A model generated the notes under the pieces. It searched no databases. It was not told the origin of the DNA and was given only the letters and a program-made list of their open reading frames with translations. Positions 15,039 through 32,181 of a stretch of DNA of 64,000 bases are shown here, one piece after another. Location of the stretch: the NCBI RefSeq assembly GCF_025457605.1, contig NZ_JAMZFY010000001.1:558001-622000 (forward strand), read 5' to 3'. The DNA is from Haloarcula laminariae. Its GTDB lineage: Archaea; Halobacteriota; Halobacteria; Halobacteriales; Haloarculaceae. Every line of letters begins with the position of its first letter. Within the stretch, counting starts at the first letter, position 1. The position numbers were made by a program, and so were the translations under genes.

Positions 15039-15350
15039 TCTTCAGCGTCACTTGCAGTGCTCTGGGTGTCGGCGGCACGGCTATAGACTTCGAGAGCCAG
15101 AAAGCCCCCGCGCTCTGGACTCCCACGACTCGCTGCGCGCCTCGGCCTCCGGCCTCCGGTGCTTGCGTCGTCGGGGTTCGTCCAGAGCGCGGCCCCTTTC
15201 AGTCCCGCCCGTGCGGTTGGTCAATCGGCTACGGATAGGACTGAAAGAGGCCGGGGGCTTTCTGGCTGCGCTTGCTTCTGTTCACAACCCCGGTACGCCA
15301 ACGACTGAGAACCGCCTCGCTTATCCGCCACAGAGCACCAACCACTCAGT
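15039..15350. other. Gene-free interval holding repeat copy A
   Basis: No credible protein-coding frame or tRNA is visible between truD and the DUF2103-like gene. Most of the interval (15095-15267) is the nested palindromic element described separately. The last 80 bases should hold the promoter of the downstream gene, but no strong TATA box is apparent. Confidence 0.7.
15095..15267. repeat. Nested-stem dispersed element, copy A
   Basis: The outer arms are a perfect 16-bp inverted repeat: 15095-15110 (AGCCAGAAAGCCCCCG) with 15252-15267. Inside, stem 1 pairs 15108-15120 with 15180-15192 (13 bp, perfect). Stem 2 pairs 15191-15205 with 15238-15252 (15 bp, one mismatch; GGCCCCTTTCAGTCC). The loop of stem 1 carries CGACTCGCTGCGC and CGGTGCTTGC, shared with copy B at 31709-31969. 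The fold is an outer stem closing two hairpins. Stem boundaries share a few bases, so the exact junction is uncertain. Confidence 0.85.
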
Positions 15351-31587: not shown

Positions 31588-32181
31588 TACCACTGATTCG
31601 GCGTCCCCCGGCTAAAGCGTAACGACCCCTAGCTGTGGTGGTCGATTGAGGGACTGGGCTTCGTATCAGCCAGAACGCCCCGCTAGCAGAACGGCGTGAC
31701 GGACTGCCAACAGCCAGAAAGCCCCCGACCGTTCGACGGCTGCGACTCGCTGCGCTCCTCACTACGTTGCGGTGCTTGCTTCGTCTCGCTCGTCGAACGG
31801 TCGGCCCCTTTCAGTCCCACCCGTAGCCGGTTGGTCAAACAGCGCTGGGTGGGACTGAAAGGGGCGGCTGGCTCCGGGAAGGCGGGCGAAATAAGCACTG
31901 GACTGAGCGTAGCGAAGGAAGGGCGCAACGAGCCCCCCGACCGGAGCCCGCCGGGGCTTTCTAGCTGTTTGAGGTCTCCTCGTAGCAGCGAGTGGATCCC
32001 ACATCATCAACCACCACTACTAGCCCCGCGTTTCCACTCCAGATGGCGACAGTATCCGGCCATCGGCTCACCGGCCGCGACTCCCCGATACGTCCGCCAG
32101 CGCGCGCGAACACCCTATCTATCGGAATCCGAACTGTTGTCTGACGCACGTTTATGTGGACGGATAGTCACTGTATAGCAT
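31588..32181. other. Gene-free interval of about 590 bases with repeat copy B and promoters
   Basis: This divergent intergenic region lies between gatB and the coiled-coil/smc operon. Bases 31709-31969 form the large nested element. The remaining right part (31970-32181) is non-coding, and CGTTTATGTGG near 32147-32157 is a candidate TATA element for the operon starting at 32182. Short frames across the interval have erratic composition and are not accepted as genes. Confidence 0.7.
31709..31969. repeat. Nested-stem dispersed element, copy B, with extra stem module
   Basis: The outer arms, 31709-31725 (AACAGCCAGAAAGCCCC) with 31953-31969, pair over 17 bp with one G-T wobble. Stem 1 pairs 31725-31738 with 31791-31804 (14 bp, perfect) but has a sequence unrelated to stem 1 of copy A. 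Stem 2 pairs 31804-31822 with 31847-31865 (19 bp, perfect; GCCCCTTTCAGTCCCACCC). A third stem, 31870-31877 with 31941-31948 (GGCTCCGG and CCGGAGCC), sits in an insert absent from copy A. Shared loop blocks are CGACTCGCTGCGC, CGGTGCTTGC and GGTTGGTCAA. Confidence 0.85.

What the first reader, a model, noticed from the sequence alone, without database searches (positions are those of the whole stretch)
15095..15267. Dispersed nested-stem element conserved by base pairing (copy A, compare 31709-31969)
Copies A and B share outer arms (AGCCAGAAAGCCCC), stem 2 (GCCCCTTTCAGTCCC) and loop blocks (CGACTCGCTGCGC, CGGTGCTTGC). Stem 1 is perfectly paired in both (13 bp and 14 bp) with unrelated sequences. 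Pairing kept while sequence changes is strong evidence that the folded form, RNA or single-stranded DNA, matters. It could be a structured RNA family or a palindromic non-autonomous mobile element of the IS200/IS605 or RAYT-driven kind. The sequence and pairing are seen; the roles are inferred.
Basis: partly seen in the sequence, partly recalled or inferred. Interest (0 to 1): 0.78.

Follow-up and report, generated by a model that had tools for sequence, protein, structure and literature searches.

The report
Haloarchaea-wide palindromic DNA repeat family
Copies A and B belong to a repeat family spread across the salt-loving archaea; its DNA hairpins keep near-perfect Watson-Crick stems while the stem sequences change completely, and some relatives have moved as miniature transposons, which makes it a striking, apparently undescribed case of DNA rather than RNA structure being preserved.

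Summary
Copy A (15095-15267) and copy B (31712-31966) belong to a dispersed family. The host genome (Haloarcula group) has 18 such hairpins; the model hits 285 of 341 Halobacteria genomes (69 of 81 genera) and none of about 124 other genomes of the phylum. A full element is two-fold symmetric: outer arms, hairpin 1, central palindrome, inverted hairpin 3. B is full; A lacks hairpin 3.

Stem 1 is 12 bp wherever it occurs: pairing is 93-98% at positions 1-12 and 14% at position 13. Of 209 stems 141 are distinct; arms of different copies rarely pair. G-U pairs are almost absent, unlike in tRNAs, so DNA rather than RNA pairing is kept. At shared sites between species the stems are as different as random ones. 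The two stems of one element avoid resembling each other (0 of 62 pairs alike, 13 expected).

Some relatives carry IS6-type tips with 8-bp target duplications, and empty sites exist: they moved as MITEs. No IS200/IS605/RAYT transposase is present in this genome.

Best reading: a new family of non-autonomous palindromic DNA elements under DNA-level structural constraint. What recognises the hairpins, and how A and B arrived, remain unknown.

The parts
15095..15267 (.). Copy A, shortened element (hairpin 1 and central palindrome; hairpin 3 missing)
   Evidence: orthologous site occupied in G022, G027, G028, G031
15095..15108 (+). Copy A left outer arm AGCCAGAAAGCCCC, paired with 15254-15267
15109..15120 (+). 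Copy A stem 1, 5' arm CGCGCTCTGGAC (12-bp core of the stem)
15180..15191 (+). Copy A stem 1, 3' arm GTCCAGAGCGCG
15192..15251 (.). Copy A central palindrome GCCCCTTTCAGTCCC ... AGGACTGAAAGAGGC
31668..31681 (+). Outer-layer arm AGCCAGAACGCCCC outside copy B (nested-layer remnant), orthologous in G022 and G027
31683..31686 (.). CTAG box left of copy B (second one at 31629)
31712..31966 (.). Copy B, full element
31726..31737 (+). Copy B stem 1, 5' arm CGACCGTTCGAC
31792..31803 (+). Copy B stem 1, 3' arm GTCGAACGGTCG
31804..31865 (.). Copy B central palindrome GCCCCTTTCAGTCCC ... GGGACTGAAAGGGGC
31857..31961 (-). Copy B hairpin 3, inverted member of the hairpin 1 family; stem arms 31866-31877 and 31941-31952, 11 of 12 pairs
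   Evidence: model R1 match, 111.4 bits

Best explanation
A and B are old copies of a haloarchaea-wide family of non-autonomous palindromic DNA elements. Shown: the anatomy; the defined 12-bp stem that stays Watson-Crick paired while its sequence turns over; the mutual dissimilarity of the two stems within an element; and insertion of some relatives with IS6-type tips, 8-bp target duplications and empty sites. Inferred: the element works as DNA. Each hairpin must fold on itself (in single-stranded or cruciform DNA) and must not pair with its inverted partner, because matching partners would make one long palindrome that cells delete or cut. Changes therefore enter both arms together, by hairpin replacement from other copies and by arm-to-arm copying, and only independently folding hairpins survive. 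Copies that gained IS6-like tips were mobilised by an IS6-family transposase acting in trans. What reads the folded DNA, if anything does, is unknown.
For: Stem boundary: pairing 93-98% at positions 1-12, 14% at 13. G.T 10 and A.C 37 of 2292 stem cells, 14 and 44 in 177 distinct stems, against G.U at 4.9% of standard pairs and no other mismatch in 11 tRNAs from the same DNA. 21 of 25 pairs changed on both sides, 202 two-sided and 2 one-sided cells. At orthologous sites stems match at 5-6 of 12 on the whole, the level of random pairs. Stems differ two-sidedly even when loops differ at only 1-4 of 47-63 sites. Within-element avoidance: mean identity 4.94 against 5.97 +/- 0.22 in within-genome shuffles; 0 against 12.9 stem pairs alike at 8 or more; same loop class 5 against 14.5. 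Mobility: 11 of 18 doubly tipped elements have 8-mers matching at 7 or more, 0.7 expected, one of them in another family (L272); empty sites; a 697-bp IS with the same tips and a weakly IS6-like transposase; archaeal IS6 size and 8-bp repeats per PMC7986276. Class-wide hits with none in about 124 genomes outside; the same perfect diverse stems in G147, another family.
Against: A and B themselves have no IS6 tips and no target duplication, so their own insertion route is not shown. No protein that recognises the hairpin was identified. A.C exceeds G.T on the inward strand (p = 1e-4; 0.03 without position 11), which would be G-U on the outward strand and leaves a weak case for one functional strand, RNA or ssDNA. 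Young uniform copies in G153 do show one-sided mismatches (2 of 9), so mutations are not corrected at once. No population data show paired changes arising.
Confidence: 0.6

Rival explanations
1. A plain selfish palindromic repeat: pairing is a by-product of replication. Template switching between the arms (quasipalindrome correction) and gene conversion between copies keep arms identical; the fold itself has no use.
For: Whole hairpins recur at different loci (CGCGTTCTCAGC four times in G000; two G031 elements 5 kb apart share both hairpins). Changes come two-sided with almost no intermediates.
Against: Correction should also erase the conserved mismatches just beyond position 12, which persist across the class. 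It does not predict that the two stems of an element avoid each other or the conserved internal loops.
Confidence: 0.22
2. A structured RNA family (ncRNA or UTR element) in which the four-way fold is the functional form.
For: Very strong covariation, conserved internal loops, G-U preferred over A-C if the outward strand is read.
Against: G-U is about ten times rarer than in tRNAs on the strand given and about a third as common on the other; the two-fold symmetric layout needs opposite strands for hairpins 1 and 3; no Rfam match.
Confidence: 0.1
3. IS200/IS605- or RAYT-mobilised REP-like element.
For: Palindromic, no target duplication outside the CTAG box in CTAG-type copies.
Against: No Y1 transposase in G000, G028, G032 or G015, all carriers; mobile copies show IS6-type tips and 8-bp repeats.
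Confidence: 0.04
4. A transcription terminator or mRNA 3'-end element.
For: GC-rich hairpins between genes.
Against: Of 26 elements 13 lie between divergent genes, 12 tandem, 1 convergent, against 25/58/17% of all gaps (simple gene caller).
Confidence: 0.04

Closest known systems
MITEs of haloarchaeal IS6-family elements (PMC7986276; MITE definition as in PMC3119063)
   Same: IS6-type tips, 8-bp target duplications, no room for a transposase, autonomous partner with the same tips
   Different: Most copies, A and B included, lack tips and duplications; the core with two variable 12-bp hairpins is shared across the class independently of the tips
PATEs of Haloquadratum walsbyi (PMC3119063)
   Same: Short transposase-free palindromic mobile repeats of haloarchaea, many copies, heterogeneous
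   Different: PATEs have IS605-related near-terminal palindromes, no inverted termini and no duplications; here termini are inverted, some copies have duplications, and no IS200 link was found
Small mobile repeats SMR-A (PMC3119063)
   Same: About 110 bp with inverted ends and no duplications, as a single 105-bp hairpin unit here; enigmatic mobilisation; insertion into palindromes resembles the nested layers
   Different: Sequences could not be compared; the two genomes of the class that look low-GC give only about one match each
REP/REPIN/BIME elements with RAYT transposases in bacteria
   Same: Dispersed extragenic paired palindromes, DNA-level pairing
   Different: No tetranucleotide tag plus hairpin, no RAYT/Y1 gene, far longer hairpins with variable stems

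Membership tests
IS6-family MITE | Terminal inverted repeats related to a known transposon | tested here: met
   GGTAGTGTTTAGTT-type tips on both sides of 18 elements in relatives; same tips on the 697-bp IS L263. Not met by copies A and B
IS6-family MITE | 8-bp target duplication | tested here: met
   11 of 18 with 7-8 of 8 matching, 0.7 expected. Not met by A and B
IS6-family MITE | Partner transposase of the family in the genome | tested here: inconclusive
   Weak PF13610 matches below the cut-off in G000, G028, G031
PATE | Near-terminal palindromes related to IS605-type ends | tested here: inconclusive
   Palindromes present, but sequences not compared with IS605 ends; no Y1 transposase in the genome
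PATE | No terminal inverted repeats and no target duplications | tested here: not met
   Outer arms are inverted repeats; tipped copies have 8-bp repeats
RAYT/IS200-type REP element | Y1 (HUH) transposase in the carrier genome | tested here: not met
   PF01797 absent from G000, G028, G032, G015
Structured RNA family | Covariation including G-U wobble at RNA-like levels | tested here: not met
   Covariation strong but G.U 0.4%, A.C more frequent; tRNA control 4.9%
Structured RNA family | Discrete transcript | not testable with these tools
   No RNA-seq available
Small mobile repeat SMR-A | Sequence match to HqIRS42/43/55 | not tested
   Sequences are in a supplement that was not available

The most novel reading that the evidence does not exclude
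The stems are actively rewritten as pairs: a DNA-level process in haloarchaea replaces both arms of a 12-bp hairpin together and keeps the two hairpins of an element different, so that each element carries two unlike, self-matching stems read by an unknown DNA-hairpin-binding system.
Probability: 0.15. Interest if true: 0.85.

Novelty: new variant of a known kind. Interest (0 to 1): 0.62.

Why it matters
It is a large natural set, present in most sampled genera of a class of archaea, in which paired changes can be studied as a DNA rather than RNA phenomenon. It warns that covariation alone does not prove a structured RNA, and it offers a simple diagnostic: the share of G-U pairs and the strand symmetry of mismatches. 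The avoidance between the two stems of one element is a quantitative footprint of selection against long palindromes or for independent folding, and can be tested in genetically tractable haloarchaea. No description of this sequence family was found in the literature searched.

Tried and rejected
Structured RNA as the first choice (few G-U pairs, symmetric layout). IS200/IS605/RAYT (no Y1 gene). Terminator (gene-orientation test). Ordinary compensatory evolution through one-sided intermediates (almost none seen; stems at orthologous sites are at the random level). Simple cassette exchange alone (stems differ while loops stay nearly identical). Whether the spacer between CTAG box and arm codes for a peptide: triplet-periodic spacing and composition, but no start codon, 22 in-frame stops inward, and the boundary is specifically CTAG rather than any stop codon; left unexplained. 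Target duplication outside the CTAG box: none. Phages: no match. Literature searched by sequence and by concept: no description found.

Full report
OBSERVATION. Copies A and B are as described. Both fold far better than shuffled sequence as single-stranded DNA, z -8.5 and -6.2.

FAMILY IN THE GENOME. A BLAST of A against its own genome gave 23 matches at about a dozen loci (sequences). A full element is two-fold symmetric: outer arm AGCCAGAAAGCCCC, hairpin 1, central palindrome GCCCCTTTCAGTCCC...GGGACTGAAAGGGGC, hairpin 3 (hairpin 1 type on the other strand), outer arm. A is a shortened form without hairpin 3. A covariance model of the 105-nt hairpin unit finds 18 units in the genome, three of them in the window: one in A and two in B.

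FAMILY IN OTHER GENOMES. A pattern scan gave 96 stretches in Haloarcula, Halomicroarcula, Halorussus, Haloarchaeobius, Halovenus and haloarchaeal MAGs. From matching contig lengths, G022 is Haloarcula rara SHR3 and G031 is MAG QS_6_64_34. In the genus, the 14-mer arm ranges from 0 to 147 copies per genome, both strands together. The model hits 285 of 341 Halobacteria genomes and 69 of 81 genera; counts per genome are capped, so they are minima. In a phylum-wide sample all 21 hits fall among the 24 genomes of the same order, with none in the other 124. Plasmids: 37 records, haloarchaeal as far as listed; phages: none. There is no Rfam match in the window.

THE STEM. In 191 well-formed units pairing is 93-98% at positions 1-12 and 14% at position 13. 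All four Watson-Crick pairs occur at several positions, while CT at positions 7-8 is nearly fixed. There are 141 distinct 5' arms among 209 units. Arms of different copies pair at 10 or more of 11 positions in 2.4%, true arms in 89%. RNAalifold and the pair counter give 21 of 25 pairs with two-sided changes and covariation 0.689 against 0.180 shuffled. A second helix beyond the internal loop covaries too. In a second family (G147) stems are equally diverse and mostly perfect over 12 bp; in a third genome (G153) a young uniform subfamily has one stem sequence, with one-sided mismatches in 2 of 9.

DNA RATHER THAN RNA. Standard pairs are almost only Watson-Crick: 10 G.T in 2292 cells, with A.C more frequent (37). 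In 177 distinct stems the numbers are 14 and 44. In 11 distinct tRNAs from the same DNA G.U makes up 4.9% of standard pairs with no other mismatches (small sample). RNA helices that drift normally pass through G-U (general knowledge); these do not. The excess of A.C over G.T means that, if one strand folds, it is the one read outward from the centre; much of the excess sits at position 11, so this is weak.

HOW STEMS CHANGE. Site A is occupied in G000, G022, G027, G028 and G031 with the same outer arms but different stems, each perfectly paired. Many other Haloarcula genomes have a short gap with no element there. Site B is occupied in G000, G022 and G027. Over 22 orthologous comparisons, stem identity centres on 5-6 of 12, the level of random pairs. 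One hairpin can stay identical while the other is replaced (G031 176296 against G000 772217), and two G031 elements 5 kb apart share both hairpins, which points to copying between loci. Some hairpins with nearly identical loops have stems that differ at several pairs, nearly all two-sided, so hairpin exchange alone does not explain the pattern.

STEMS WITHIN AN ELEMENT. In 62 elements with two good hairpins, the two stems match at 4.94 of 12 positions on average; within-genome shuffles give 5.97 +/- 0.22. None match at 8 or more (12.9 expected) and the internal-loop classes coincide 5 times (14.5 expected); 0 of 300 shuffles were as extreme. Each hairpin thus pairs with itself and is kept unlike its partner. 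The simplest reason is that similar partners would form one palindrome of over 200 bp; this is inferred.

MOBILITY. A subset, mainly in G031, carries GGTAGTGTTTAGTT-type tips about 31 nt outside the arms. Eighteen elements have such tips on both sides and 11 of them have flanking 8-mers matching at 7-8 of 8 (0.7 expected), including one in another family (L272). Orthologous sites without element exist (for example G031 254047, AAAAACGC duplicated, with no element at the diverged site in G022, G027 and G000). G028 carries a 697-bp IS with the same tips and a 219-aa protein with a weak match to the IS6-type transposase domain, in line with archaeal IS6 elements of 700-750 bp and 8-bp repeats (PMC7986276). 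The Y1 transposase of IS200/IS605/RAYT is absent from this genome and three other carriers. A and B are of another, older-looking type without tips or duplications.

CTAG BOXES. In tip-less copies a CTAG lies 34-58 nt outside the arm far more often than the base rate. Its distance is 1 modulo 3 in 83 of 91 cases, nested arm-to-arm distances are 0 modulo 3 in 22 of 26, and the spacer has a triplet-periodic composition. CTAG is the stop codon of an inward-reading frame in 28 of 77 cases. No target duplication lies outside it. I could not explain the triplet rule.

PLACEMENT. By a simple gene caller, elements lie between divergent (13), tandem (12) and convergent (1) genes, against 25/58/17% of all gaps, which speaks against a terminator role.

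VERDICT. A new, class-wide family of palindromic, partly MITE-like DNA elements. The kind (non-autonomous palindromic repeats) is known; the invariant-length, sequence-hypervariable, Watson-Crick-only stems with avoidance inside an element are, to my knowledge, not described, and the literature searches found nothing. Limits: model E-values are rough, sequences are related so pair counts are not independent events, and no expression or binding data exist.

Noticed in passing
34-58 nt outside the arms of tip-less copies; window 31629, 31683, 32020: CTAG boxes at distances of 1 modulo 3 from the arm (83 of 91), with triplet-periodic spacer composition; not explained by an open frame
   Followed up: partly
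L031 1499-1690, L098 398-602, L115 4034-4271 (Haloarcula rara): Tandem arrays of 5-6 nearly identical 45- or 48-nt units (arm plus spacer) on one side of an element
   Followed up: partly
L263 1208-1904 (G028): 697-bp IS with tips GGCGGTGTTTAGTTAAG / GGTCGTGTTTAGTTTGG and a 219-aa weakly IS6-like transposase; probable helper of the tipped copies
   Followed up: partly
Site B, window 31629-32023 and L147, L148: Nested layers of arm plus spacer around the core, as if a new element had replaced the core of an older one
   Followed up: partly
G153 loci L306-L315: Young uniform subfamily (stem AGCCGGCTCCGG) in another haloarchaeal family, with CAAAGCCCC instead of GAAAGCCCC
   Followed up: no
Four 400-kb stretches of G000, G022, G027, G031: Elements lie mostly between divergent genes (13 of 26) and almost never between convergent ones
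   Followed up: partly
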